From a virus: 64,000 nt of DNA. Shown piece after piece: positions 24,978 to 43,271 of this stretch. The notes under the pieces are model-generated. The model searched no databases, had not been told where the DNA came from, and was given only the letters and a program-made list of their open reading frames with translations. The DNA is taken from IMG/VR virus record IMGVR_UViG_3300042298_000319, positions 1 through 64,000 of that record, one strand, 5' to 3'. Numbering within the stretch: the first letter of the stretch is position 1; every line of letters begins with the position of its first letter. A program made the translations under genes and the position numbers.

Positions 24978-26651
24978 ATGCCACAAGTCGTCGCTGCTGC
25001 TATGGCTCAAGCTGCTATGGCTGGAGGAACCGCCGCCGCTACCACCGCCGCCACTACTGCGGCATCAACCGCCGCGCTTGAAACTGCTAAGCAAGCGGCG
25101 ATTCAAGAGGCTATGAGGCAACAAGCTGCTCAGCAAGCGACTCAGCAAGCAGCTCAACAAGCAGCTCAACAAGCTGCTGCACAACAAGCAGCTCAACAAG
25201 CTGCTGCACAACAAGCAGCACAGGCCGGTTTAACACAGGCCGGTGCCGGAACACCGGGGATTGCGCAAGGCGCTACGCCCCCTACACCGCCCGGAGCGCC
25301 TGCCGCCCCCGCTGCGCCACCTCCTCCTGCTTCGCCACTTCCTCCTGCTGGCAGCAACATGACGTTAGAGCAACAATTACAGTTCTTAAAAAATAACCCG
25401 TCGAACCTTGGCAACTTCCCGCAGTATGAGCAAGTAGCTCAAGCGGGCACAGAAGCTACTCCTCTTGTTGAAAAAGCGGCTATGAACCCGCCTATAACAA
25501 TAGGTGAGACTGTTGCCCGTGTAAACCCTGAATCATGGATGTCTAATCCGGGCATAACCGATAGGGAGATTGCTTCTAGAGTTGGGGAGCGGTTTATAGA
25601 CTCTCAGACAAGCGGGATTGCTAAAGGGGCGACAGACGCTGTTAACTGGATGAAAAACAACAAGTTTGAAACAGGACTTGGGTTCATGATGGCGGGTCAG
25701 GTTTACGATAAGGTCTTCCCAGAAAAGAAGAAGGAGTATCGTAATACAGTGGATATGTCTAAGTTTAAGCCTTCGATTGCAAGGCCGATACGTTTTACTC
25801 CTTCTTATAATTACGCAGACGGTGGCCCCGTGCAACAAATGTCAGACATGAACGCGTTAGGGGCAAATATGGGTTATCCGATGGCGGCGTTAAACACGCC
25901 AGCGTACTCTAACTCCGCAATACAAAGCCCACGAGCCACTAATGTAATAGCTCCTAGCGGTGGCCCTGCGGTTGACGCGTTTAATGGAGAACCACGATTT
26001 GCTAGTGGCGGTATAGCTGATCTTGACCTTAAAGATTACGCGCTTGATAAAAAACAAAAGACATCAAAAAATGCGTCGAAAGCTTTGTCTGATATGTACA
26101 AGGCTACAGAAGCAGAACGCAATAAACAAATGGCTGCTGCTCGTGCGGCTATGGTCGATAAAGAAGATTCAGGCGGGACAGTTGCAAGAAGCCGTACTCA
26201 GCTTCTAAGCAGCCCATTTTCTGCGGCGGTAGAAGAACATAACCGCCTCGCTAAGAAAACAAAAACTAAACCGGCTGCTTTACCTAAAACTAATTTAGGC
26301 GACATTGACAACTACATGGACATACCGGTTGATACGGTTGCCGCTGCTAGTGGTGGAATCATGAGCAACCTTGGCGGCTATTCTGACGGCGGACGTTTAT
26401 TGAGAGGGCCCGGCGATGGAGTTTCGGATTCTATTCCTGCTGTCATTGGCAAGCGTCAGCCTGCTCGTCTTGCTGATGGTGAGTTTGTAATCCCTGCGCG
26501 TATTGTGTCTGAGCTAGGCAACGGTTCAACTGAAGCTGGCGCAAGAAAGCTCTACGCGATGATGGAACGAATTCAGAATACGCGTAAGAAATCTATCGGT
26601 AAAAAGAAAGTAGCGGTTAATAGTCGCGCTGATAAACATCTACCTGCTTAA
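24978..26651 (+). CDS. Internal virion-type protein, Ala/Gln-rich
   Basis: A 557-residue protein. The first 90 residues are Ala with Gln/Thr and include a long AAQQ repeat tract, then a Pro/Ala/Gly linker. The C-terminal half holds KGG-family elements (YADGGPVQQM, RFASGGIADLD) and a block GPGDGVSDSIPAVIGKRQPA followed by RLADGEFVIPARIVSELG. I have seen this block in large phage internal and tape-measure-type proteins. Its place before the GNAT-like gp13-type gene suggests an ejection protein. Confidence 0.6.
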   Translation: MPQVVAAAMAQAAMAGGTAAATTAATTAASTAALETAKQAAIQEAMRQQAAQQATQQAAQQAAQQAAAQQAAQQAAAQQAAQAGLTQAGAGTPGIAQGATPPTPPGAPAAPAAPPPPASPLPPAGSNMTLEQQLQFLKNNPSNLGNFPQYEQVAQAGTEATPLVEKAAMNPPITIGETVARVNPESWMSNPGITDREIASRVGERFIDSQTSGIAKGATDAVNWMKNNKFETGLGFMMAGQVYDKVFPEKKKEYRNTVDMSKFKPSIARPIRFTPSYNYADGGPVQQMSDMNALGANMGYPMAALNTPAYSNSAIQSPRATNVIAPSGGPAVDAFNGEPRFASGGIADLDLKDYALDKKQKTSKNASKALSDMYKATEAERNKQMAAARAAMVDKEDSGGTVARSRTQLLSSPFSAAVEEHNRLAKKTKTKPAALPKTNLGDIDNYMDIPVDTVAAASGGIMSNLGGYSDGGRLLRGPGDGVSDSIPAVIGKRQPARLADGEFVIPARIVSELGNGSTEAGARKLYAMMERIQNTRKKSIGKKKVAVNSRADKHLPA

Positions 26652-29816: not shown

Positions 29817-32800
29817 ATGGTAACTTATGAAATCCGTGGGCCAGATGGCAAGAACTATCGAATTGATGGCCCTGAAGGAGCTAGTAAGGAACAAATAGTA
29901 TCGGCTATTCAAGCCAAGCTTGAATCTAAAAAGACCGCTAGGGAAGAAGAGGAAGCGGCTAAAAAAGTTGAAGCCCCTAAAGCTGAACCTGAAACAGGGT
30001 TTACCGCTGCCGTTCGTTCGGGCTTTGTACGTCTGCTAAGTGACTTCGAAGCAATGAAGGCGGCTGGTAACGTAGAAGGCGCTGAGAAAAAAGCCAAAGA
30101 GCTTAGAGAAGAGGCGGCAAGAATATACAAGCAGCCAGAACTGCTTGATGCTCCGTGGGAATATATTAAAGGGCTGGCTGGTCAGTCACTCCCCTATATG
30201 GTTGCGCCGGTCGCCGCCGCTGCCGCTGCTACTGTTGCAGCCCCCACCGCTATCGCTGGCCTTGCTGCTACTGGCGCAGCGTTCACCGCCTCCGCGTTAC
30301 AGTTCTCCGGGTCTAACCTTTCCCGTCAGCTAGAAGAAAATGTAGCGGCGAAAGACCTAAAGGTACTAAACGCCGTTGCCGCATCTGTGCCACAGGCCGC
30401 GCTTGATACCCTCAGCTTACGCATGGTTCCGGGGCTTAGAAATGTGTTCGCTAAAGCTGGTATTAACCTAAGCGAAAAAGAAGCTGCGCAGGTCGCTAAA
30501 GAAAGTATCGTAGGACGCGTAGCTAAATCTTCCGGGGCAGAAGGTCTTACAGAAGCTGCGCAACAAGTGTTTGAACGCGCTCAGGCAGGGCTAAGTCTGA
30601 CTGACCAGAAGGCACGCAAAGAGTACTTTGACAACTTCATAGGCGGTGCAATCCTTGGCGGCGGTATAGCTGTACCCGGTGCTGCCTACGAGAAGATGAA
30701 GGCGCAGGACAAAGTCCTAGCCAAAGAAGCAGAAGATGCGCGTAAAGCGGCGGAGCAAGAAGCCGCTAAGATTAGTCAGACTGCCGTGCCTGATGAGACA
30801 GGCAACGTGCCACCCCCGGCACCGCTACCCTCCTTTGAAACAAGGCCACCAATTACAGCGGCCCCTGAAGCCGACATTGACCCAACTATTGCGCTGGCCG
30901 AAGCCGCAGCAGCACCGATTGAGGCCACGCCAGCTAAACCCGCTGAAGCCGCCCCAGAAGCAGCGCCCGCTCCTAGCGGGTTGTCAGACCTAGAAATTGA
31001 AGACGCCTACGCTGCTACAGGAGTTAACACAGAGAAGGTGCGTAAGACTCTTGAGCCGCAACTTATCGAGGCGGGCTTTGATACTAAAGAGAAACAAAAG
31101 GAATTCTTACGTAGCAAACAAGCTGAACTAGGCATTCCGAAGTTTGATCCAAAAGCTTCGAAAGAGGAGCAAGAAAAACAGCGAGAGGCTAAGAAGTCTT
31201 GGATTGAAAGTCACACGGCTAAAAAACAAACGGAGGTTACTGATGTCGAGAAGCCTACTAGAGTTGACCCAACAACAGCTCAGCCTAGCACTGTTAGTCC
31301 TGCATCAGGAGTGGGAGCAACCCCCACAGGAGCTGAAACACTTGGAACCGTTGGATTGGGTGATGCTGGAGGACCTACTACACCACCTCCTACAACAGAA
31401 GGAACGCAGCCCGCTGCATTAAAGCAAAGTGAAATAACTTTCAACGACGGCGCCACATATGTTGGGACAACCTTAAATGGTGTACTTGAAGGGCAGGGAA
31501 CGCTAACTTACCCTAATGGCGACACATATGTTGGTGAATACAAAAACGGTAAACGCGACGGTCAGGGCACGTACACTTTTGCTGACGGCGATACATATGT
31601 TGGCGGATATAAGGACGACAAGTTTCACGGTCAGGGTACATACACTTACGCTGATGGCTCTGTAGAAACAGGTATTTTTGAAAATGACGAATTAATTTCG
31701 GAGGAGAAACCCGGTGTCTCTGAAACCCCTCAAGCCGAGCAAGCAGAAGCGCAAAGACAAGAAGAAGCAGCCCCCGCCGAGCGCGTAGTACTTACGCCTG
31801 AACAACTTAAGACAGGCTACAAACTACTGCAAGAGCAGTACGGCGATGAGCTACCTTCGTGGGGTGACCTTACCGCTGATATGCGGAAGGCGTTTGTTGG
31901 TGAAATAGAAGGCGCTTTAAAGACCAAAGGCATGTTGCCTTCTAAAGGCGCTGCGCCAACAGTGTCTCCTAATATTGCTGCGCTCAAAAAAGTTAAAGCG
32001 GTTATTAATTCTTATAACGAAAACCGCCCTGAGCGTATGCGGCAATGGGCTGATCTTAACGAAGATGAGCGTGCGTTGTATCTGTCTGAGATTAGAAACA
32101 ACACAGCGGAAGAACAAGACAGGGCATATAACCTGTTGTATGGGTATATGAAGTCCAGTCAGAAAATAACGCAAGAAGGAATGGAAGAAGGCATCGTGCC
32201 AGAAGGCGCGTCTGTCTATGAATTAAATAAAAAGGCATACACTTCTCAACTCCCACGTTGGGGCGAACTAGACGATACAGCGCGTTCACTATTTATAAAC
32301 GCGATCCGCCCCGGCATGACGTTTGATGAGAACGGTAAAGAGGTATCGCGTCAGATAACTAGTGAACAAATGGACACGGGGTTTGCTGACATTTGGATTT
32401 ATTTAGCAGAGAAAGAAGCCCGCGCCCCGAAAGAAGAAGAAGGCAAGGCACAGCGAGTCGCCAGAGAAGAAGCAGCGGCTGCTAAAGAAGAAGTCGAAGT
32501 CGGTGCAGAACTGCCTCCGTTAATTAAGGCGCTTCTGGGTAAGGGCGGTGTCAAAGAAGCCCTACAGTACATAATGAGTAAGGCTAAAGGCGTACGGATA
32601 AATAGAAAAGGCCGTAAGCTTGGCTCCGTGCGGGTTGCTGAAGCACGCTATGCGGCACTTACTCGCGGGATATTTAAGAACGTAGCAGCTGCGCTCTATA
32701 AGATTGACTTCTCTGGATCGTCTGTTGTCGTAGACCCGAACAACGCTGTAATTAAACAGTTGATACGTGAGGGCAAGTTAGCCGCGTACGACCCTAAAAC

Positions 32801-35800
32801 AGATACGTTCTACTTCACCAAAGACGGTATGGATGAGATGACCGTCCTGCATGAGATTGTTCACGCAGGCACGATCAAGATTCTGTACGCATTTAAGACC
32901 AACCCTAATAGCCTGACTCGTGAGCAGCGAGAAGCCGCTGAGCAGATCAATAAAGTATACGAGTTTGCTAAGAAGAAATTAGAAGGCAAGTATGCCAATC
33001 AGCTAGAGAACGTGTATGAGTTTGTTAGCTACGCGCTAACCGACCCACGCTTCCAAGAAGAGCTATCGCGTATACAAGCGCCTTCTCTTGCCAGATATAC
33101 AAAGGCGCCTCTAGGCGCACCGTCCGGCTTTAACATGCAGACGGTTTGGTCGCACTTGACCAAAGCTATGATGAAGTTGTACGACCTAACAAAGGCTGCA
33201 ACTAGGTTCTTTGAAATTAAGCCAGACTTGTATGACCAAGTGTCAAGGGCATTTGGCGGCGAGAGATACACCAAGCAGAAACTAGAAATAAACAAAGGCG
33301 TACAACGCGAAGTAGCTGTTTATCTTGAGACAGAAGATAAAAAGAGGGGGGAACTAAGCCCCGGTGTACGACTGACGTTTGAGTCTGTTAGAAATCTAAA
33401 AGACGATGTGCAAGAACGTCTTGAAGAAAACTACCCAGATGCGTTTGAAGACACGTCAGACCAAGGCGTCTTAGACTTTGTAAACAAGTACCTAAAAGAC
33501 AAAGCGTTTGCAGAAGAAGTCGATAAGACGACTGCTGACATTTACAAACAAGGTAAAGTTGGGCTGTCCAAACAAGCTGGTTTTCAAGGCAACGCGCTGC
33601 TTGAGGTTACCCAAGCGTTCCAAGACATTCTAGCTGCGCCAGAGGCGGGCATCGACATAGAGGCTCTACCAGCTAAACAGGCTAAGCCAACTATACAGGC
33701 CCCGGCTGGTGGTTCTACAGATATTAACGAGCTGCGTGACAGCATCCCTAGCCCGTCGTTCAACGCTAGACAAGTAGTTAAGACATTTAGCTTGAGTAAA
33801 TTTACGGAAGCTGCGGTGCGCATTTTCCAGAACGACCGTGCCGCTATTAAGAATTGGCAGCGCAGAATGTGGCTGACAGGTCGGTTAGTCGCCTACTCTA
33901 CAGGGTTCAACAACATATACGATCAGCTGACGCTGTCTTCTGGTAACGCCCACTGGCTGTATACGCAATACGTTCAAGAGCATAACGAGGCTGTGCGCGA
34001 AGCAATAGCCGATTACGCAAAAGCCCGCAAGCTAGATATGGACACGGCGTTGAAAGAGCTTGGCATGTTTGCGGTGGCCTTGCATGAACCTGAGCGGCGT
34101 GAAGTCCTCTATTTGCGTACAGTCGATCTATCCGATAAACCAATACTTATCGACAAAGCTACAAAGACGCCTATCTCCCCACGAGAAGCGCGTGACGCAA
34201 TCTTTAAGTATCTTGACTCAAACAAGTTAACTTTAGCTGACGCTAAGTATTTACGTAAGACGCTGGAAGATATTGTCAATGACAAGAGTAACTTGGACAG
34301 CACTGTAAGTCCTACTCTGCTAGACCGTAACGACCAGAAGTACGCTGTGGCGGGCTACACACCAGCCCAAGTTAAGGCAATGATCGCCAACTATAACCAA
34401 CACAAAGCGGCGGCAGACAAAGTGTTGGACAAACTTAAAGCTGTAAACGAAGCCACTCTTGAGCTTAACAAGATGGCTAATTACATGTCTGAGTACGCCA
34501 ATAACTATTTGATGTTCTACGGGTTTAACAGCTACGTTCCGTTTAAGGGCAAGAACTTTAACGAAGACAAAGCCGACATGTTCAACCATGACGGGCGCAA
34601 GTTGGGCGGTGACTTCCAAGAACAGCAACATACGTTTGAAGGTCGCTTGACGGTTCCTGATAACCCGTTGCTACAAGTTATGGCAGACGGTGCGAAAGCC
34701 GCTATGCGGGCTGGACGGCGCGATGTGACACAGGCCATCTACAATGCAGTGAAAGAAAAAACATTAGATGGCGAGATCATAGAGGAAGTAGATTTTAAAG
34801 ACCGCGCCAATGACGACTTACTGCAAAGGCTTAAAGGGGACACAAAAGTATTCCATTACATGCCTGACGGTAAGGTAGCTATTATTCAGATTAATGATAC
34901 GCAACAACGCGAGGCTATCCGCCGCACTTACCGCGATACCAACCCTGCGTTGGACTACATGGTTAACACCATGAATAACCTAACTGGCAAAGTTGGGCAG
35001 ATGCACACCCGCTTCAAGCCGTCGTTCGCCCCTGTTAACTTTGTGCGTGACGTGCTGACTAACGCTTGGACTATTGGTGCTGAAGGCAAGGGGTTACTTG
35101 GCCCACTGCAATCGTTCCGTTATCTAAGTTCCGTTGCACTAAACATAGTCAAGGGGGACTTAATTAGATCATGGCGTGCCGCTGCGCTGTACTCACAAGG
35201 CAAAACTGGGGTACTTGAGCGGCTGGCAAAGAGTAATCCCTACTATAAAGACGTGCTGGATTACTATGAGTCAGGCGGCAGAGTGTCTTACATACAAGGC
35301 ATCGCGCCAAAAGGTCAGTTAGACCAGCTTCTTAAAGCCCCAAGTGGCAAGATTGACGTAAGCGGCGTTACTCGCTTGTTTGATATTTGGGTCGATACGT
35401 TTGAAACTGCTTCGCGTGTGGCGGCGTTTAGGCTAACTAAGTCAAACGAGATGGCTAAGCTATCTAAACAACCCGGCTTGTCTAAGAAAGAAATAGAAGA
35501 AGCCGCGACCAAGACAGCTGCGGCGTTCGCCAAGAACCTAGCTAACTTTGAGCAAGTAGGTGAGTGGGGTAGAAGTCTTGGTGCTCTGTTCATGTTCTAC
35601 CGCCCATCAGCTACTGGTGCAGTGCGTGCTATGGATGCTGTTGCCCCGGCGTTTCGCAATAAAGAGTCGGTAAAACAAAGCTTGCCTGAATACGCCCGCG
35701 CTGCGCAAATCCGCCATGAGCTTGGTAAAAACCCTACGGCTAAGAAAGAAGCAGAGCTAAAAGCAGAATTAGCTACGTTGGATAAAGCTTTAGCCACATT

Positions 35801-36863
35801 TGATAAGAACTACGGGCAGCTACAGACAAGTTCACGCTTAATGGTAGGCGCTTTAGCCGGTGCCGGAGTTACTTTGTATTTAATGGCGCAGGCAAGTTCA
35901 GACGATGACGAGCTAGGACGTAATAGAGTATCAACTGATGATATGGCTCGATGGACTAAGTTTGCCCGACTGCATTTACCGGGGTTTGATAACCCAATTC
36001 AGTTGCCGTGGGGCTTCGGCTTGGGCGCTTTTGCGGCGCTAGGTTCTCAACTCGCTGCCATGACTGATTCGGAAAACCCGACTAAGCCGACTGAAATCTT
36101 CGGCAACATGATAGACATCGCAACGGACTCCTTTCTCCCGCTGCCGTTCTCTCGCATTCCTTTAACGGAAGACCCCGGACGCAAGATGTTGGACAGTATA
36201 TTGCCTAGTATCTTCCGTCCAGCGTTTGAGTATTACATGAACATGGATGCGCTAGGGCACCAAATCTATAACAACCGGCAAAGCCGGTACGGTGATGCGT
36301 ATACAGGGGGCGACAATATACCGGAGGCATTTAAAGACGCTGCAATATTGTTGGCAGAGTCAACCAACGGGAAGATAAACTGGAGTCCTAACGTAATGTA
36401 TTTCTTCTTTAATAATTATGTGGACGGTGTATCGTCGCTAATTAATAGCCCATACAACATGGCGCTTTGGATGTCGGGCAGTAAAGACTTTAACTCACAC
36501 ACCGACACCATGATCTTCGACAGCTTCTTTGGATCAAGGTCTAACTTTGACGCGCGGCAATGGTCTAAAGTTGAAAAAGACCTAGAGCAACGGGCTGAAA
36601 AAATTAACATGTTTAAAAATGACCCAGCTAAATACTATGAGTACTTAGCTGAGAATCCGTTCGACGCTATGTTAGTTAAGATGTACAACGGCGATGCTAA
36701 CAAGAAGCTAAAAGACCTACGTGAAGAAGCTAACAAGTGGCGTACCATGAAAGGGTTAGACGTTAAAACAAGAACTGACCTTGTCAAAAACGTCGTGCTT
36801 CAGCAGAACCTTCTTAAGTACAGCCTAGTACAGAAATACAAAGCGTTTGGCGTAGAGCCTTAA
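29817..36863 (+). CDS. Giant polyvalent internal protein with MORN repeats and HExxH motif
   Basis: A 2348-residue protein. Residues 1-35 (EIRGPDGKNYRIDGPEGASK) are a small phage-typical domain. Residues about 120-170 are Ala-rich and hydrophobic. Residues about 541-625 hold three to four MORN repeats (GATYVGTTLNGVLEGQGTLT, GDTYVGEYKNGKRDGQGTYT, GDTYVGGYKDDKFHGQGTYT). His1012-Glu-Ile-Val-His1016 forms an HExxH zinc-protease motif. The C-terminal third (PVNFVRDVLTNAWT ... RSLGALFMFYRPSATGAVRA) resembles LPD38-type polyvalent protein regions (from memory). Proteins of this class are co-injected with DNA. Replacement of a T7 gp16-like protein is inferred from its position. Confidence 0.7.
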   Translation: MVTYEIRGPDGKNYRIDGPEGASKEQIVSAIQAKLESKKTAREEEEAAKKVEAPKAEPETGFTAAVRSGFVRLLSDFEAMKAAGNVEGAEKKAKELREEAARIYKQPELLDAPWEYIKGLAGQSLPYMVAPVAAAAAATVAAPTAIAGLAATGAAFTASALQFSGSNLSRQLEENVAAKDLKVLNAVAASVPQAALDTLSLRMVPGLRNVFAKAGINLSEKEAAQVAKESIVGRVAKSSGAEGLTEAAQQVFERAQAGLSLTDQKARKEYFDNFIGGAILGGGIAVPGAAYEKMKAQDKVLAKEAEDARKAAEQEAAKISQTAVPDETGNVPPPAPLPSFETRPPITAAPEADIDPTIALAEAAAAPIEATPAKPAEAAPEAAPAPSGLSDLEIEDAYAATGVNTEKVRKTLEPQLIEAGFDTKEKQKEFLRSKQAELGIPKFDPKASKEEQEKQREAKKSWIESHTAKKQTEVTDVEKPTRVDPTTAQPSTVSPASGVGATPTGAETLGTVGLGDAGGPTTPPPTTEGTQPAALKQSEITFNDGATYVGTTLNGVLEGQGTLTYPNGDTYVGEYKNGKRDGQGTYTFADGDTYVGGYKDDKFHGQGTYTYADGSVETGIFENDELISEEKPGVSETPQAEQAEAQRQEEAAPAERVVLTPEQLKTGYKLLQEQYGDELPSWGDLTADMRKAFVGEIEGALKTKGMLPSKGAAPTVSPNIAALKKVKAVINSYNENRPERMRQWADLNEDERALYLSEIRNNTAEEQDRAYNLLYGYMKSSQKITQEGMEEGIVPEGASVYELNKKAYTSQLPRWGELDDTARSLFINAIRPGMTFDENGKEVSRQITSEQMDTGFADIWIYLAEKEARAPKEEEGKAQRVAREEAAAAKEEVEVGAELPPLIKALLGKGGVKEALQYIMSKAKGVRINRKGRKLGSVRVAEARYAALTRGIFKNVAAALYKIDFSGSSVVVDPNNAVIKQLIREGKLAAYDPKTDTFYFTKDGMDEMTVLHEIVHAGTIKILYAFKTNPNSLTREQREAAEQINKVYEFAKKKLEGKYANQLENVYEFVSYALTDPRFQEELSRIQAPSLARYTKAPLGAPSGFNMQTVWSHLTKAMMKLYDLTKAATRFFEIKPDLYDQVSRAFGGERYTKQKLEINKGVQREVAVYLETEDKKRGELSPGVRLTFESVRNLKDDVQERLEENYPDAFEDTSDQGVLDFVNKYLKDKAFAEEVDKTTADIYKQGKVGLSKQAGFQGNALLEVTQAFQDILAAPEAGIDIEALPAKQAKPTIQAPAGGSTDINELRDSIPSPSFNARQVVKTFSLSKFTEAAVRIFQNDRAAIKNWQRRMWLTGRLVAYSTGFNNIYDQLTLSSGNAHWLYTQYVQEHNEAVREAIADYAKARKLDMDTALKELGMFAVALHEPERREVLYLRTVDLSDKPILIDKATKTPISPREARDAIFKYLDSNKLTLADAKYLRKTLEDIVNDKSNLDSTVSPTLLDRNDQKYAVAGYTPAQVKAMIANYNQHKAAADKVLDKLKAVNEATLELNKMANYMSEYANNYLMFYGFNSYVPFKGKNFNEDKADMFNHDGRKLGGDFQEQQHTFEGRLTVPDNPLLQVMADGAKAAMRAGRRDVTQAIYNAVKEKTLDGEIIEEVDFKDRANDDLLQRLKGDTKVFHYMPDGKVAIIQINDTQQREAIRRTYRDTNPALDYMVNTMNNLTGKVGQMHTRFKPSFAPVNFVRDVLTNAWTIGAEGKGLLGPLQSFRYLSSVALNIVKGDLIRSWRAAALYSQGKTGVLERLAKSNPYYKDVLDYYESGGRVSYIQGIAPKGQLDQLLKAPSGKIDVSGVTRLFDIWVDTFETASRVAAFRLTKSNEMAKLSKQPGLSKKEIEEAATKTAAAFAKNLANFEQVGEWGRSLGALFMFYRPSATGAVRAMDAVAPAFRNKESVKQSLPEYARAAQIRHELGKNPTAKKEAELKAELATLDKALATFDKNYGQLQTSSRLMVGALAGAGVTLYLMAQASSDDDELGRNRVSTDDMARWTKFARLHLPGFDNPIQLPWGFGLGAFAALGSQLAAMTDSENPTKPTEIFGNMIDIATDSFLPLPFSRIPLTEDPGRKMLDSILPSIFRPAFEYYMNMDALGHQIYNNRQSRYGDAYTGGDNIPEAFKDAAILLAESTNGKINWSPNVMYFFFNNYVDGVSSLINSPYNMALWMSGSKDFNSHTDTMIFDSFFGSRSNFDARQWSKVEKDLEQRAEKINMFKNDPAKYYEYLAENPFDAMLVKMYNGDANKKLKDLREEANKWRTMKGLDVKTRTDLVKNVVLQQNLLKYSLVQKYKAFGVEP

Positions 36864-37111
36864 GCAACACGCCAAACACGTACGCCCAGATGACCTTCTT
36901 TATGGCAGGTGTAAATCTTTACCCGTACCTCTGCCTTCTTAGCTGCTACGTCAGCTAAATAGATCATCTGGGCTGGACGCAAAGTAGGTACGAAAAAGCT
37001 ATCCCCTACATTCATGTAAGCGTACGGAAAAACCCATTCGGGTTCCTCAGTCAGCCTCTCCATGTCCATCGGAGCCAAAGAAAGAACTTGGGATTTTTGT
37101 TTCAAAGACAT
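36860..37111 (-). CDS. Small phage protein of the PYAYMNVGDSFFV type
   Basis: An 83-residue protein read toward the late genes; its TAA overlaps the giant gene's TAA (stop-to-stop, 36860-36863). The sequence contains PYAYMNVGDSFFVPTLRP and the ending KEGHLGVRVWRVA, a small alpha/beta pattern I recall from short phage proteins near replication genes. The start is uncertain: M1 overlaps the primase end by 65 bp without a ribosome site, and M15/M17 are alternatives. Function unknown. Confidence 0.6.
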   Translation of the reverse strand: MSLKQKSQVLSLAPMDMERLTEEPEWVFPYAYMNVGDSFFVPTLRPAQMIYLADVAAKKAEVRVKIYTCHKEGHLGVRVWRVA

Positions 37112-39902
37112 AGCAATTTACGTTCATGTTTTTGTCTAGGATGCTAAACGCGCCCTTCCAACCAGAGTCCAAACGCATCTTCTTCGTCCCGACTAAGATA
37201 CCTTTGTCCTTCATCGCCTTCTCAAACTCGCGTGAACTAAGTTGTTTCTCACCGAGATACTTTTTGAATTCGGTAGTGGAGATATAGACGTGCCCGGTCG
37301 CAACGTCGATCCGCCCGACAAGTGATGCTCTCGGTTCATACGTAACCTTGCCATCATTAATCCCAAGAAAACCTGTATAGAACTTGTTGATGTATTCTCC
37401 GACGAGTCCTTCATAATCCATGTGCCCCAGTCTAACTACGTTGTCACGTAGGTTAATCATCTCATACAGCACGCGGTCATAAATTCGGTTCAACTCAAAG
37501 TCAATGATGTTGAACTCATTAGCCACCATGCCGCCTGTAAACACTGCGCAGATGTAATCTTTATAGAAACGATAGATGTCGTCTGCCCCAAAGTCTTTTT
37601 CAAACCTTGCCAGCCAGTACGCTATGCGGTCTAGCAAATCGTTCTCGCCTAGTATGTAAAAGCCCTGTACTAGTTTGATGCCAGCATGACCGTAGTTATA
37701 CCGTAGTGGGTCAAATATGCGGCGCCCCATATGAGGGTCTTCTATCATGGCGCGGGGCTTTTCAATCATCAGCTCAATCAACCGCGCCATCTCCCCGTTG
37801 GCGTAGCTCTTCTTCTGCATAATAAGATCAAGCATGGGTTGGTTGGATGTAAGCATCGCTATAGATGAGGCTACTAGCTCATGCTCCCGTTCAGCGTTGA
37901 CCGATCCCTGCATCCTGATCTTGGCTTTACCCTGCGAGACTGCGTGAATAAATCTAGCCACCTCGTCTCCGGGCCTGTTATGCGCTTCGTCTAGTCCGTA
38001 TGGGATATTTTTGAAGGTAACGTATCGCGTTATTAATCCATTCTGTGTCGCGTCCAGCACCCACATATCCTTCGGGTTCCCCCATGTACTCAGGTTCGCC
38101 ATGAGCGCACCAGTCTTCGCATTCCCCGATTCCCCGGTGAATGACAAAGTTACGCCACTTGTAGATGTCAAATTCATTAGCGGCGCGCCGAAGCCGGTAA
38201 GCGCACCAAGGGCGTGTAGCTCCATTGATGGTCGATTCAGCTCTTGCACACATTCTTGCCATTTTTCAAATGTCCCCTTTGGGTCAAACATCTTAGCCAC
38301 GCTACGGATAATCGGCGCAACAGCCGCCTTCACAACAGTGCCATCGCGCTTAACCATTTGATTGCCAATAACAAACTCGTCACCAAAGCGTTTGCCGCCT
38401 TCAGTGACTTCTGTCCAGCCCATTTGCATCTGGACTATTTCTGCGGGAACCGTACTAGCTAAATACTTTCCCCATTTATTTAAATATCCCATGAGGTGCA
38501 CCATCAAGTGAGGTAGTGGGATGATGTCGTGAAACAGCAAAGACTTCTTCAGCTCATCCGTTGACTGAAGAATCCTAATAGGCAGCAAAAATTCTTTTGG
38601 CGGGTCTTTGGGTAACAGCAGCCGCATCAGCATCAAAGCCCCGTCTGTCTTGCTGTAGAGCCGCTCTACCGGAAACAACTCGTGCTCGTAAATCAATATC
38701 GGGTCTTGCTCAATCTTGTTTCCCTTCTTATCTTTTTCAGGCGGTGGCTGGTAATAAATGCCGCCTCTCTCCGCTCTAAAGTACGGAAACAAGTACTGCG
38801 GGTGATCTGGAATTAGGCTCTTTGAAACAGCTTCGGTATCCTCGTCCTGCCGAACTGTGTCCGCCTTAGCGACTTTGATGATTCTTCCGAGGGCAAGAGG
38901 GTTAGTGATGCTTCCTCTGTGCTTGCAGTTACTACAGACATCGGGGTTGATGTTGTCAAACACTTCGCAAGAATAAGGCTTGCCTTGCCGCTGGTGTGCT
39001 TTCTTTTCTGTTTCTTCCCAACTATAGCCGGGGTAGTCGCAGGAGATTGCGTGGATTGCTTCATCTCTGTCGGTGCAGTGTTGTGCGATAGACAGCACGG
39101 CTGTCCATACTGGTTCAGGGAGCGTTTGTCGGTTCTCGATTGCCCACTTAATTTGCTCACACCCATCTCCTTCCATGCTACGGATTGCGATCTTGTCGAA
39201 TACCGTCTCGTAGTTGTCCATCTTCAGAAGAGCCCTAGTCTCTTCGTCAAGCCCTTTCGGAACACTCTTTAGGACATCAGCCGCCGCTATGTTAAATTCT
39301 TCTACGCCAAGAAACTCTTTAAACGCTTCAAAGGAGTAAGTGTGTATCTCGTCAGTCAGTACAGCAGTAGGTGACGGTGGGTCTGTCTTGTAATTAAACG
39401 TGTCAGGACAGCGCAGGATGCGTGAAACATCTGCGGTGACTACGGGGTCAATCTTTATGTGTTCAAGGCAGAACGCTTTGAACTTCTCAGCGTAAGGTTT
39501 CCACTCTGCTACGGGGATGTCTTCGTCGAAGAGCCAATAGGCGTGGACGCCTGTACCCGAATCGATAATGACCGGTGGAGGGAGTTCTTGTCCACCCACG
39601 AATCCCGATAGATGCTCAAGAGCTTCTTCTTTTGTTCCGTATCCTTTGCCATCTCCGACATCGAGATCGACGAAGAATGAACGTAGGTATTGCGCATCCT
39701 CTGCCTTTCTAGAATAACCTTCGAAGGTTGCAAGTGCCACATAGACATTATCTCCGCCCAACGAGAACTGTCGTGCAATAGTTTCAAGTTCATCAAGGCT
39801 CTCCGTAAACCTTTGCGTTATCTTGTGCGTCTTTGGATGGATTCGTGCCACACAATAGACGCCCTGCGAAGGCAATGCTTTCTCGTAAAATTGTTTTATC
39901 AT
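37047..39902 (-). CDS. Bifunctional AEP-type primase and helicase
   Basis: A 951-residue replicase. The N-terminal half has an archaeo-eukaryotic primase signature: FFVDLD (Asp79, Asp81), then SGTGVHAYW with His120, then DPVVTADVSRILRCPDTFN (from 152). A Cys pair (DVCSNCKHRG) lies at about 323-326. The C-terminal half carries a Walker A-type GESGNAKT at 590-597 and a DUF927-like helicase pattern (PYGLDEAHNRPGDEVARFIH). It would make primers and unwind the fork. No paired primase is seen elsewhere. Confidence 0.82.
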   Translation of the reverse strand: MIKQFYEKALPSQGVYCVARIHPKTHKITQRFTESLDELETIARQFSLGGDNVYVALATFEGYSRKAEDAQYLRSFFVDLDVGDGKGYGTKEEALEHLSGFVGGQELPPPVIIDSGTGVHAYWLFDEDIPVAEWKPYAEKFKAFCLEHIKIDPVVTADVSRILRCPDTFNYKTDPPSPTAVLTDEIHTYSFEAFKEFLGVEEFNIAAADVLKSVPKGLDEETRALLKMDNYETVFDKIAIRSMEGDGCEQIKWAIENRQTLPEPVWTAVLSIAQHCTDRDEAIHAISCDYPGYSWEETEKKAHQRQGKPYSCEVFDNINPDVCSNCKHRGSITNPLALGRIIKVAKADTVRQDEDTEAVSKSLIPDHPQYLFPYFRAERGGIYYQPPPEKDKKGNKIEQDPILIYEHELFPVERLYSKTDGALMLMRLLLPKDPPKEFLLPIRILQSTDELKKSLLFHDIIPLPHLMVHLMGYLNKWGKYLASTVPAEIVQMQMGWTEVTEGGKRFGDEFVIGNQMVKRDGTVVKAAVAPIIRSVAKMFDPKGTFEKWQECVQELNRPSMELHALGALTGFGAPLMNLTSTSGVTLSFTGESGNAKTGALMANLSTWGNPKDMWVLDATQNGLITRYVTFKNIPYGLDEAHNRPGDEVARFIHAVSQGKAKIRMQGSVNAEREHELVASSIAMLTSNQPMLDLIMQKKSYANGEMARLIELMIEKPRAMIEDPHMGRRIFDPLRYNYGHAGIKLVQGFYILGENDLLDRIAYWLARFEKDFGADDIYRFYKDYICAVFTGGMVANEFNIIDFELNRIYDRVLYEMINLRDNVVRLGHMDYEGLVGEYINKFYTGFLGINDGKVTYEPRASLVGRIDVATGHVYISTTEFKKYLGEKQLSSREFEKAMKDKGILVGTKKMRLDSGWKGAFSILDKNMNVNCYVFETKIPSSFFGSDGHGEAD

Positions 39903-39919: not shown

Positions 39920-39941
39920 GGGCAGAGCAAAAGCTCTGCCC
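39920..39941 (-). terminator. Intrinsic terminator upstream of the primase gene
   Basis: On the minus strand GGGCAGAGC, loop TTTT, GCTCTGCCC is followed by a short T-rich tract. It would end the transcript of the small Cys-rich gene and HTH gene, or reduce read-through into the primase. The T tract is weak. Confidence 0.65.
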
Positions 39942-39963: not shown

Positions 39964-40116
39964 TTAGGAGCAGAACGTACTGCAGTTATTCCCGTAACTA
40001 TCGCAGCAAGTTGTACACATCACAGCACGTCCGTTGTAAAAGTAGCTGTGTGTGGTGCAGCCAGCGTAAGCCATGCCAGCAGAAGTTAACGCCCAGATTA
40101 CAAATAGTTTTTTCAT
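39964..40116 (-). CDS. Secreted Cys-rich 50-aa peptide
   Basis: ATG at 40116 overlaps the HTH gene's stop (ATGA), with AGGG upstream. The product has a clear Sec signal peptide: basic KK, a hydrophobic core (LFVIWALTSAGMA), and an AYA-G site at residues 16-18. The mature part is about 32 residues with six cysteines (20, 34, 37, 38, 45, 49) and a CTTCC core. Cys20 follows Gly, but the -3 Tyr makes a lipobox unlikely. An exported, disulfide-rich peptide is expected. An intrinsic terminator follows the stop. Confidence 0.75.
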   Translation of the reverse strand: MKKLFVIWALTSAGMAYAGCTTHSYFYNGRAVMCTTCCDSYGNNCSTFCS

Positions 40117-40424
40117 AGCGGTTGCCCTATCATGTTTTCGAGGTAGGCTTTAGCTTCTTTCAATGACTTAACAGGCAGATCACCACTTGCTGTATCTTTC
40201 CTGAGCAAAGAAATCATAGCTAAAGCCAGCTCCTCGTTCTTACCCCGTAGAATCGCGCCCCTAAACCAATTATGTATTGTTATACGAGACACGTTGAGTG
40301 CCTGTGCAACATACTTGGCTGGTAGATTAGCCTTCACACATTCTTGCGCCAGCATGACGCCAACACGATGGGTGTTCTTGCTAAACACTTCATCAATAAA
40401 TTCTTTGCTGTAAGGACGCGGCAT
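40113..40424 (-). CDS. HTH DNA-binding protein
   Basis: A 103-residue protein. A predicted helix-turn-helix lies at residues about 36-57 (AKYVAQALNVSRITIHNWFR), close to the Cro/C1 or resolvase-type pattern. It starts at 40424 with AGAGG upstream. It may regulate the replication arm. The target site is unknown, but repeated palindromes further along the same strand are candidates. The stop overlaps the Cys-rich peptide start. Confidence 0.7.
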   Translation of the reverse strand: MPRPYSKEFIDEVFSKNTHRVGVMLAQECVKANLPAKYVAQALNVSRITIHNWFRGAILRGKNEELALAMISLLRKDTASGDLPVKSLKEAKAYLENMIGQPL

Positions 40425-40432
40425 TTTTCCTC

Positions 40433-41266
40433 TTATGACTTCTTAGACCATTTTTTGATGACATCAGACGCTTCAGTAGTCTGCATCACCGGCTTTTTAG
40501 CGCTCTCGCGCACAGTCGGTTCAGCTACATCCACCGTAGCTTCTCCTTCCTTCTTCTTGTACACGGTCAACTTAATTGCTGCTTCAGCTGCCGCGCTCTT
40601 ACCCTGCTGACTAATAATGTCAAAGTCTTTAGGATCAACTGCACCTGCTGGTGAGAACAACACTTTCGGGAACTGCACCTTAGTGTCGAACGCAACCTTC
40701 GTTACCACGCGACCTTTGGATACGTTGTTACTGGCAAGCATCCCAATGTACGACTTGAAAGGCCAGCGTCCGTTTTCCTCTTTGCCAAAAGTCGAAGCTG
40801 CGGGGATAACGAATTCCAGTACGTCACCACTTGGGTCTTGTGGTAGGACGACAGCTGTGCGCCATGACAGTTTACATTTCGCGCCAACACCGGAATCGTT
40901 CGAGCCCTTAGCTGAGTTCGGGCAAACATCGCACGTTGGAGCACAAGGGTGCTCAACATCATCGTCGGGCTTAACGGAGTCGTTTGACCAGCAGATCGGA
41001 GAAACGGTTTTTCCTTCTTCATACGTACCCTCGTAGCATTGACGCGACGCGCTGTGTGCCATACGAACAAAGATCACGTTCATATGACGGTCTTCGATAC
41101 TGCCTACTTCTTTGCCGCCTACCATCTTGCGGAACACACCGCCTTTGATAGACAGACGCTTAGTCTGATTACTACTACCACCCGCAACTGCGGCGGTATC
41201 TTCATCAATACCCGACTGAATGATTGACGGGAAGTTTGCTAGGATTGTTGCGAGTTCTGTACTCAT
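40433..41266 (-). CDS. Conserved replication-region protein with zinc-type Cys cluster
   Basis: A 277-residue protein starting at the ATG at 41266 (GAGG upstream). A cysteine cluster (HPCAPTCDVCPNSAKG, then CKLSWR) at about 100-130 resembles a metal-binding finger. The core is beta-rich. The C-terminus is a charged linker ending in a Lys-rich tail (VIKKWSKKS). Between the helicase and primase genes this is the position of a phage single-stranded DNA-binding protein. That role is inferred, not shown. Confidence 0.55.
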   Translation of the reverse strand: MSTELATILANFPSIIQSGIDEDTAAVAGGSSNQTKRLSIKGGVFRKMVGGKEVGSIEDRHMNVIFVRMAHSASRQCYEGTYEEGKTVSPICWSNDSVKPDDDVEHPCAPTCDVCPNSAKGSNDSGVGAKCKLSWRTAVVLPQDPSGDVLEFVIPAASTFGKEENGRWPFKSYIGMLASNNVSKGRVVTKVAFDTKVQFPKVLFSPAGAVDPKDFDIISQQGKSAAAEAAIKLTVYKKKEGEATVDVAEPTVRESAKKPVMQTTEASDVIKKWSKKS

Positions 41267-41284
41267 AATTAACCTCAACTAAAT

Positions 41285-41689
41285 TTAACTAACACGGGAC
41301 GTGGGCTTACGAACTGTGATGGTGAACTCACGCATCACATTCACTCCGGGCGGTAGTCCTTCATGATGCCGCTCAGACATGAATTCTTTAAAATTACCTT
41401 GATGCAAACGCGCTTCAAACAACTCAACTGCACCTGTCTCTAATACGAACTTGTTGAAGTTATCGCGGTCAGCGCAGGTGTAGCGTTCTTTCAATGACTT
41501 AATTACTGTGCCGCTGTCAGTGCGCAGACTCTCAACCTTCATGTCGTTACACCCTGCCAGCATCTCTTGTTCAAGGATCGCCATGTCAGCCTTCAGCTGC
41601 ATGTCGCGTTCTTTGTATTCCGACTCGATCTTTTCACGCTCATTTCGAATAGTCAAGTAGGCTTTAACTAATTCATTCATATCCTTCAT
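41285..41689 (-). CDS. Small coiled-coil protein of the replication operon
   Basis: A 134-residue protein. Residues about 8-45 are a charged coiled coil (IRNEREKIESEYKERDMQLK). The second half, YTCADRDNFNKFVLETGAVE then LPPGVNVMREFTITVRKP, is a small alpha/beta domain. It overlaps the helicase gene end by 17 bp. A recurrent neighbour of SNF2-type phage helicases, as I recall. Function unknown. Confidence 0.65.
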   Translation of the reverse strand: MKDMNELVKAYLTIRNEREKIESEYKERDMQLKADMAILEQEMLAGCNDMKVESLRTDSGTVIKSLKERYTCADRDNFNKFVLETGAVELFEARLHQGNFKEFMSERHHEGLPPGVNVMREFTITVRKPTSRVS

Positions 41690-43271
41690 AGGTTTTTTCT
41701 CCTAGTTCTGATCTATACAGATCGATAAGTTTCTCGTGAGAATCAACTTTGCTTTGCAGCATCCGATACATCTTCCGTTCAACCTCTGAGCCTTGCAGGT
41801 GCACTACTGTCATACGATTCTTCTGCCCCACACGATCAATACGGGCAATACATTGCAGGTATGTTTCGACAGACATAACCGGCGACCAGAAGACGATTGT
41901 GTTTGCAGCGGTTAACGTGACACCGTGTGACGCTGCTTGAGGCTGGATGACAAGCACTCGCGGTTCAGGCGTAGATTGAAATTTATTAACAATCCTAGTG
42001 CGTTCATTGCCTGACACGCTTCCGTTAATAACTTCATTAGTGATACCGTTTTCAGCTAAGAATCTCGATAACATTTCGATAGTGTGCGTGAACGGTACAA
42101 ACACCAGCACCTTGTGTTCTGTTTCTTCTAACACCTCCATAAGCGCGTTGAGCCGGGGCTTCACATCAAACTCCACTACCTCACGCGCATCTGAGTACAC
42201 GGCCCCGCCCGCAACTTGCAACAGCTTGGATAGCTTCGCTGCGGCATTTACTGCGCTTATCTGTTCCCCCGCTGCTTGTACTAGCATCTCCTCTTTCAGT
42301 GCCTTGTAGTACTTCGCTGCCTGTGGGGTCAGTGGTACTTCGCGGGTCTGATACAACACCTCTGGCAGATCAAGGCATTCTTCTTTTGAGAATCTGATAG
42401 CAGGTTGTAGCGCATGGAATACAGTATCTTTAGATGACGGCTTTGGTATCCATTTAAATCTAGTTAGCTGAGTCATGACCTTATCGCGCCACGCCGTCGC
42501 GTACTTAGGAACACGGTTCGGTGACACCAGCCGAGCCAGCCCAAACGCATCAAGCGGTGACTGAGAAGCGGGTGTGCCGGTCAACATCCAAAGCCTAGTC
42601 TCAGGCTTAATTAGTTTTGCTAACAACCGCCAGCGCACAGTGGACGTAGTCTTGTAGGCGTTAGCCTCGTCCACGATGATCAGGTCAAACCCCCCGCTGT
42701 TAATCTCATTAAATAGGATGCCCACGCCATCGTAGTTAACAACTATGAACTCGTAGTCTCCGCTGATTATTTTCTTACGCTTAGCGGCGGGGCCATACGC
42801 AATCCCTACCGTGCGGTGCATAGCTGCTTTGAAGATATCGGCTTGCCACGCCGAATACATAATTGTCAGAGGGCACACAACAAGCACGCGTTTAACCAGC
42901 CCCAAGCTCATTAAATAGTCAGCCGCCCATATCATCGACGACGTTTTGCCTGTACCCGCTTCGTTAAAACAGAACGCGCGGCGCCTTACCGACATGAATG
43001 AGGCGGTAGTTTTCTGGTGGTCGAACGGTTTAAAGATGCCCGGCCAGCTATAGTCTTTGAGTATGGGTGATGGGATATTGTCGTAGCCGAAGGACTCAGC
43101 TAGAAAGGTAACCTCATCAAGCCCCCAGTTGACCAGCAGTTCGGTGTGGGTCTTGCCGCGATTCAATGCTGCGGACTTTTCGATGTACTTGAGAACGACA
43201 TCTGCGTCCTCGTTAGGGGCGGTAAAACGGAGGGCGGACTCGTCCACCACTGTAAACTTAATCGTACTCAA
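41673..43271 (-). CDS. SNF2-type superfamily 2 helicase
   Basis: A 532-residue ATPase. Motif I EAGTGKT at 104-110, motif II DEAN at 201-204, motif III LTGTPASQSPLDAFGLARL, and motif VI QCIARIDRVGQKNRM near residue 485 match the SNF2/DEAD-box-like group. Phages use such proteins at the fork or in recombination. The start codon appears to be TTG at 43269-43271 (GAGGTTAAA upstream). The next gene is 17 bp inside its 3' end. Confidence 0.85.
   Translation of the reverse strand: MSTIKFTVVDESALRFTAPNEDADVVLKYIEKSAALNRGKTHTELLVNWGLDEVTFLAESFGYDNIPSPILKDYSWPGIFKPFDHQKTTASFMSVRRRAFCFNEAGTGKTSSMIWAADYLMSLGLVKRVLVVCPLTIMYSAWQADIFKAAMHRTVGIAYGPAAKRKKIISGDYEFIVVNYDGVGILFNEINSGGFDLIIVDEANAYKTTSTVRWRLLAKLIKPETRLWMLTGTPASQSPLDAFGLARLVSPNRVPKYATAWRDKVMTQLTRFKWIPKPSSKDTVFHALQPAIRFSKEECLDLPEVLYQTREVPLTPQAAKYYKALKEEMLVQAAGEQISAVNAAAKLSKLLQVAGGAVYSDAREVVEFDVKPRLNALMEVLEETEHKVLVFVPFTHTIEMLSRFLAENGITNEVINGSVSGNERTRIVNKFQSTPEPRVLVIQPQAASHGVTLTAANTIVFWSPVMSVETYLQCIARIDRVGQKNRMTVVHLQGSEVERKMYRMLQSKVDSHEKLIDLYRSELGEKTYEGYE

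What the first reader, a model, noticed from the sequence alone, without database searches (positions are those of the whole stretch)
39964..40116. Secreted six-cysteine micropeptide coupled to an HTH gene
A 50-aa gene, below usual size cut-offs, has a good signal peptide, an AYA cleavage site and six cysteines in a 32-residue mature part. Its ATG overlaps the HTH stop, and a terminator follows. A replication-arm phage gene that exports a disulfide-rich peptide is unexpected. It may act in the periplasm: superinfection exclusion, signalling, or inhibition of an envelope enzyme.
Basis: partly seen in the sequence, partly recalled or inferred. Interest (0 to 1): 0.65.

Follow-up and report, generated by a model that had tools for sequence, protein, structure and literature searches.

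The report
Secreted disulfide micropeptide in phage replication operons
A tiny exported, cysteine-laced peptide that gene finders tend to miss is carried beside the DNA-replication genes of many otherwise unrelated environmental phages, and it probably works early in infection in the space between the host's two membranes.

Summary
Window 39964-40116, MINUS strand, encodes a 50-aa Sec-type precursor with six Cys in a 32-aa mature part. Its ATG overlaps the HTH stop (ATGA), and a real hairpin terminator follows. It is one member of a large, undescribed phage family: at least 593 matching stretches in IMG/VR, but only 2 of 50,697 GenBank phage records, where the record I read leaves it unannotated. 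In 93 unique family proteins the Cys framework C-x13-C-x2-CC-x4-6-C-x3-C is kept (one has x14, one has two extra Cys), and all have [AVTS][YW]A|xC. Selection is at protein level (pN/pS 0.11 mature). AlphaFold gives a three-stranded meander (pLDDT 90). Of 126 distinct loci, 117 lie within 4 kb of a recombination/replication gene. A four-Cys sister family sits in the same modules. The best reading is an early periplasmic peptide, most likely superinfection exclusion (about 0.35). Function is untested; the target is unknown.

The parts
39964..40116 (-). six-cysteine secreted micropeptide gene, 50 aa, stop included
   Evidence: family; selection
40063..40116 (-). Sec/SPI-type signal peptide, residues 1-18, cleavage AYA|GC (inferred)
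   Evidence: K at 2-3, hydrophobic core, AYA; [AVTS][YW]A|xC in 93 of 93 family proteins; K/R in first six residues in 93 of 93
39967..40062 (-). mature peptide, 32 aa, C-x13-C-x2-CC-x6-C-x3-C; predicted three-stranded meander
40113..40116 (-). ATGA overlap of HTH stop and peptide start
   Evidence: the same -4 overlap with the upstream gene in 33 of 107 distinct loci that have a same-strand upstream neighbour
40125..40128 (-). AGGG, Shine-Dalgarno-like
39920..39941 (-). terminator-like hairpin, 9 pairs, between peptide and primase genes
   Evidence: also at HTH-primase junctions without the peptide
40113..40424 (-). small HTH protein (103 aa), upstream neighbour
   Evidence: Pfam HTH_3 E 0.0037, below cut-off
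37047..39902 (-). DUF927/primase-helicase-like replication protein downstream
   Evidence: PF06048 E 6.7e-20; phrog_8841
40433..41278 (-). c13, conserved module protein
   Evidence: phrog_27714
41285..41689 (-). c12, conserved module protein
   Evidence: phrog_13900 E 6.3e-25; weak DUF7307 Pam3 gp33-like
41673..43271 (-). SNF2-type helicase
   Evidence: PF00271, PF00176
43859..44539 (-). PD-(D/E)XK nuclease
   Evidence: PF12705
44533..46413 (-). family A DNA polymerase
   Evidence: PF00476

Best explanation
The gene is a small cargo gene of the phage early (replication/recombination) operon. It is translated together with its upstream neighbour, exported by Sec, cleaved after AYA, and oxidised to a rigid three-stranded beta-meander whose strands are tied by cross-strand disulfides (inferred pairs, mature numbering: C2-C19, C16-C31, C20-C27). 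It then acts in the periplasm while phage DNA is being replicated, most likely by blocking entry of a second phage (superinfection exclusion), by binding a conserved envelope component with its conserved face (H5, Y7, R12, V14, T18, T29). Shown: family, frame, Cys framework, signal-like start, module location, predicted fold. Inferred: timing, export, disulfide pairing, binding face. Guessed: superinfection exclusion and the target.
For: Protein-level selection. Cys framework and SPI-type site kept in 93 unique family proteins. Confident meander model. Strand pairing fits the Cys spacing: with the NG turn at 10-11, C2 faces C19, and C16/C31 and C20/C27 share one register. An independent check: L004 carries two extra Cys at mature 8 and 13, exactly a cross-strand pair of this register. 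The four-Cys sister model has the same three strands, keeps the equivalents of C2-C19 and C16-C31 and lacks both C20 and C27. Location: 117 of 126 distinct loci within 4 kb of a replication/recombination gene, 108 on the same strand; 107 of 125 upstream neighbours co-directional. In ten long records the peptide was within 4 kb of such a gene in 10 of 10, against 31% of positions. One copy in 15 of 15 records. Precedent: many phages express superinfection exclusion proteins early, and small size is common to them (PMC9586334, passages); T4 Spackle is an early, periplasmic, signal-cleaved, disulfide-bonded protein (PMC7677548, passages); Rtp45 is about 6 kDa with a disulfide (PMC12685063, passages).
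Against: No experiment. No sequence or clear fold match to any exclusion protein. Receptor-directed exclusion proteins should diversify with the receptor, yet the mature part is strongly conserved across phages with unrelated replication modules, which fits a conserved host target (perhaps not exclusion) at least as well. The clusters used in the location control came from the peptide's own neighbourhood, so that control is somewhat circular. Early timing is read from operon position, not from expression data.
Confidence: 0.35

Rival explanations
1. Early envelope-takeover or anti-defence peptide: it binds and inhibits a conserved host periplasmic enzyme, protease or membrane-associated defence protein, to help the phage's own replication rather than to exclude others.
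For: Strong conservation of one predicted face (mean entropy 0.87 bits against 1.52 for the other face, non-Cys positions; faces from inferred register). Occurs beside unrelated replication modules.
Against: No target known; no match to inhibitor families.
Confidence: 0.27
2. Lysis-timing factor of the RI antiholin kind: a periplasmic disulfide peptide that delays holin triggering.
For: Small, signal-bearing, Cys-containing; the T4 RI precedent is recalled and comes from no call.
Against: It lies in replication modules; in the window the operon runs opposite to the large plus-strand gene block. Lysozyme-type genes found near the peptide were on the opposite strand in 17 and on the same strand in 8 cases.
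Confidence: 0.1
3. Extracellular signal or toxin: a released peptide used for phage-phage communication (arbitrium-like) or against competitors or grazers.
For: Secreted, probably disulfide-stabilised; in the window it adjoins a DNA-binding HTH gene.
Against: HTH adjacency is local (7 loci); the mature sequence is conserved where signal peptides usually diverge.
Confidence: 0.08
4. Periplasmic metal-binding peptide (CxxH plus CxxCC) that scavenges or buffers a metal.
For: H5 in 69 of 78 unique mature sequences; six invariant Cys.
Against: His is replaced by Q, S or Y in some; the Cys spacing fits cross-strand disulfides, and the extra Cys pair of L004 falls in register.
Confidence: 0.07

Closest known systems
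T4 Spackle (gp61.3)
   Same: early gene product, signal-cleaved, periplasmic, disulfide-bonded, small (PMC7677548, passages)
   Different: Spackle is a 75-aa helical bundle with one disulfide; this is predicted all-beta, 32 aa, six Cys, no detectable sequence relation
T5 Llp, Cor and Rtp45 superinfection-exclusion lipoproteins
   Same: very small phage periplasmic proteins; a disulfide in Llp and Rtp45 (PMC9586334, PMC12685063, passages)
   Different: those are lipid-anchored; this family lacks a lipobox (Y or W at -3 in 93 of 93) and is conserved across diverse phages
A0A6J5M8Q5, 'Lipoprotein' of an uncultured Caudovirales phage (BFVD/UniProt)
   Same: 49 aa, 55% identical over 31 columns, same fold (TM 0.84, Foldseek E 0.012): in all likelihood a member of this family
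   Different: only a database name; I did not see its full sequence, and the lipobox that the name implies is absent from the family
Four-Cys sister peptides found here (A6/A8)
   Same: signal peptide, three-strand model, same replication modules
   Different: lack C20 and C27; profile link strong with the signal peptide (94.8%), weaker for the mature part (51.8%)

Membership tests
Llp/Cor/Rtp45-type SE lipoprotein | lipobox and N-terminal lipid Cys | tested here: not met
   -3 is Y or W in 93 of 93 and -1 is Q or N in 11 of 93; SPI-type [AVTS][YW]A|xC in 93 of 93; lipobox consensus recalled
Llp/Cor/Rtp45-type SE lipoprotein | sequence relation to solved members | tested here: inconclusive
   profile A2 against all PDB chains: 0 matches at E up to 10; such small proteins diverge fast
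Llp/Cor/Rtp45-type SE lipoprotein | blocks receptor binding of a superinfecting phage | not testable with these tools
   needs phage assay
T4 Spackle | helical-bundle fold | tested here: not met
   model is all-beta, pLDDT 90.4
T4 Spackle | inhibits tail lysozyme | not testable with these tools
   needs enzyme assay
T4 Spackle | signal-cleaved periplasmic early product | tested here: inconclusive
   signal-like start in all family proteins; replication-operon position; no expression data
Inhibitor cystine knot / conotoxin-like peptide | C-C-CC-C-C order with knotted 1-4, 2-5, 3-6 disulfides | tested here: inconclusive
Arbitrium-type peptide signal (AimP) | paired with a dedicated DNA-binding receptor, divergent signal part | tested here: not met
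   HTH family adjacent in only 7 loci; mature part conserved; one of 18 A2 members gave AimP_fam E 0.06 in NCBIfam, one of 14 weak families
Known protein families (Pfam, PHROGs, NCBIfam) | significant profile match | tested here: not met
   A2 members: Pfam best E 0.0035 (YoaP, 3 of 18 members), PHROGs best 0.023, NCBIfam best 0.0092; P0001 none in Pfam at 0.1

The most novel reading that the evidence does not exclude
A large, undescribed superfamily of exported disulfide-ladder micropeptides (four- and six-Cys forms) is a standard cargo of the replication/recombination operon in many unrelated environmental phages. It binds one conserved envelope target of their hosts: a periplasmic step of phage takeover that isolate-based phage biology has missed because the genes are too short and the phages have rarely been cultured.
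Probability: 0.35. Interest if true: 0.8.

Novelty: new variant of a known kind. Interest (0 to 1): 0.6.

Why it matters
If true, a gene below annotation cut-offs is a widespread early cargo gene of environmental phages, and it points to an unknown periplasmic vulnerability or exclusion mechanism that can be tested with a 50-aa construct. The family also offers a natural, minimal disulfide-stabilised beta scaffold with four- and six-Cys versions.

Tried and rejected
Lipoprotein reading (name of A0A6J5M8Q5): rejected for the family, no lipobox. Functional pairing with the HTH gene: rejected as a general rule. Terminator as part of a self-contained moron: weakened; a hairpin and the following TGTCTCTGCG are also seen at peptide-free HTH-primase junctions (for example L193, L196, L204). 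By a strict test (perfect stem of 6 or more pairs, then T-rich) 17 of 61 such junctions have a terminator.

Host chromosomal origin: not seen. Genome-contig scans gave 0 relatives of 25 stretches and 1 of 7 (L104, a 5.3-kb contig of a Burkholderiales MAG); profile search 1 of 399 genomes of that order and 1 of 398 of that phylum, both the same genome G001; plasmids none.

Fold searches: PDB 459 matches at E up to 10, none at 0.001; VIA best Z 3.7, generic; BFVD; the four-Cys model gave no hit at E up to 0.001. Relatives of P0007 in viral contigs: 0 of 27 stretches. The host was not identified.

SNF2-helicase scan for presence/absence: 0 of 80 loci had the six-Cys gene and 4 of 80 a four-Cys one. 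The 80 kept were tied at E 0 and did not include the known carriers, so this is not a frequency.

Literature: searches (PMC open-licence library) showed no description of this family in the listings I saw. Fremin et al. 2022 (small phage genes), the paper most likely to list such families, is not held and was not read; supplements could not be looked at. PMC11323111 was seen as passages only.

Full report
WHAT IS THERE. The finding lies on the minus strand. Window 40116 to 39964 encodes MKKLFVIWALTSAGMAYA-GCTTHSYFYNGRAVMCTTCCDSYGNNCSTFCS. The ATG overlaps the stop of a 103-aa HTH gene as ATGA, with AGGG about nine bases upstream, and a nine-pair hairpin with a T-rich tail follows, then the primase gene. 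The window is 64,000 bases of a 65,485-base virus record, with one copy of the gene. The operon is PolA, PD-(D/E)XK nuclease, a small basic protein, SNF2 helicase, c12, c13, HTH, peptide, DUF927 primase; it runs opposite to the large plus-strand gene block.

A FAMILY, NOT A CHANCE ORF. A tblastn search of 50,697 phage records found two near-full-length relatives, both from Manatee Spring, 51% identical; the record I read (MW202462) annotates a gene on the other strand and none for the peptide. I held 176 loci, with 177 profile hits and 95 unique proteins. I dropped two before the statistics: MW202462 (shown, also six Cys) and one truncated sequence, which proved to be a decayed second copy in L142 beside an intact one. 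In the remaining 93, the window's own included, the spacing is C-x13-C-x2-CC-x4, 5 or 6-C-x3-C in 91, x14 in one, and the same framework plus two extra Cys in one. The site [AVTS][YW]A|xC is present in 93 of 93 and K/R in the first six residues in 93 of 93. In 36 disjoint pairs pN/pS was 0.108 for the mature part and 0.313 for the signal; whole gene 0.18 in this frame, 1.3 to 1.9 in four others and 0.27 in the reverse frame that shares third positions.

FOLD. AlphaFold on 78 unique mature sequences gave pLDDT 90.4 (pTM 0.44, low for a 32-residue chain): strands 2-9, 12-20, 27-31. I did not have coordinates; the disulfides are inferred from strand register. A two-residue NG turn at 10-11 puts C2 opposite C19; the second hairpin puts C16 opposite C31 and C20 opposite C27. 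L004 has two extra Cys at mature 8 and 13, which face each other in the same register, an unplanned check. One predicted face is more conserved than the other (mean entropy 0.87 against 1.52 bits over eight non-Cys positions each). Searches of PDB sequences and folds gave nothing convincing; the best BFVD match is a likely family member named Lipoprotein.

LOCATION. After removing duplicates (gene plus 40 bases each side identical) 126 of 176 loci remained, one GenBank phage and one MAG contig among them. 117 of 126 have ERF, NinB, YqaJ, RecT-like, SSB, SNF2, DUF927, PolA, PD-(D/E)XK or HNH/DUF968 genes within 4 kb, 108 on the same strand; the upstream neighbour is co-directional in 107 of 125, with a four-base overlap in 33 of those 107 (ERF, NinB, YqaJ and DUF968 identified by Pfam; the RecT and SSB labels are my reading of sequence). 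The nine loci without such a gene are mostly short. In ten long records, 31% of positions lie within 4 kb of such genes and the peptide does in 10 of 10; the query clusters came from peptide neighbourhoods, so this control leans toward the result. 15 of 15 long records have exactly one copy.

MOBILITY. Within the window's own module type the gene occurs between HTH and primase, between SNF2 helicase and c12, between c12 and c13, between c13 and HTH, and before the SNF2 gene. In 61 relatives where HTH and primase could both be placed, the junction is at most 175 bases and has no peptide; 17 of 61 have a terminator by a strict test, and several share the sequence after the hairpin with the window. 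In nine carriers of the HTH-primase slot (7 distinct rows) the hairpin covaries (4 of 9 pairs, all cells paired). So the peptide gene was probably placed as the last gene before an existing terminator.

A FOUR-CYS SISTER. Among 80 SNF2 loci four carry a secreted peptide with C-x13/14-C-x2-C-G-x4-C. A scan found 35 loci: 27 next to the same module, where both neighbours are visible between nuclease and SNF2 helicase, and eight beside YqaJ and/or a small c7 gene, the same neighbourhood as six-Cys members. Profile comparison gives 94.8% with the signal peptide but 51.8% for mature parts, so homology is likely, not proven. Its model has three strands in the same order (pLDDT 84.0) and keeps two of the three inferred disulfides; the third pair, C20-C27, is absent as a unit. 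A GenBank phage (MW202572) has another four-Cys ORF in a stretch annotated only on the other strand.

HOW IT MOST LIKELY WORKS. Early co-expression, Sec export, oxidation, periplasmic binding; superinfection exclusion is a known job of small early periplasmic phage proteins (passages of PMC9586334, PMC7677548, PMC12685063). The strong conservation across unrelated phages is the main argument against a receptor-specific mechanism like Llp and for a conserved envelope target. I put 0.35 on exclusion, 0.27 on inhibition of another envelope target, and less on lysis timing, signalling and metal binding.

NOVELTY. No Pfam, PHROGs, NCBIfam or PDB sequence family covers it. At least one likely member is in UniProt under the name Lipoprotein. 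I found no description in the searches listed under Tried and rejected; the key small-gene survey could not be read.

Noticed in passing
window 29817-36863 (+): A 2348-aa ORF with MORN-like repeats (recognised by eye, from no call) inside a giant, possibly virion-internal protein.
   Followed up: no
L293 3935-4114 (MW202572): A four-Cys secreted peptide ORF lies in a stretch where the GenBank record annotates only an opposite-strand gene.
   Followed up: partly
L142 4203-4349 and 4940-5050: Intact six-Cys gene followed about 600 bases on by a truncated second copy that stops just after the second Cys.
   Followed up: partly
L004 6001-6150: Member with eight Cys; the two extra ones sit at a predicted cross-strand position and may form a fourth disulfide.
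   Followed up: partly
L015 7113-7334 and cluster 19: A recurrent short protein with a Cys-rich N-terminus and a hydrophobic stretch, near the peptide in 13 loci, mostly downstream.
   Followed up: no
window 24978-26651 (+): Protein whose residues 482-548 match proteins of three 65,014-base cyanophage records (47% identity).
   Followed up: no
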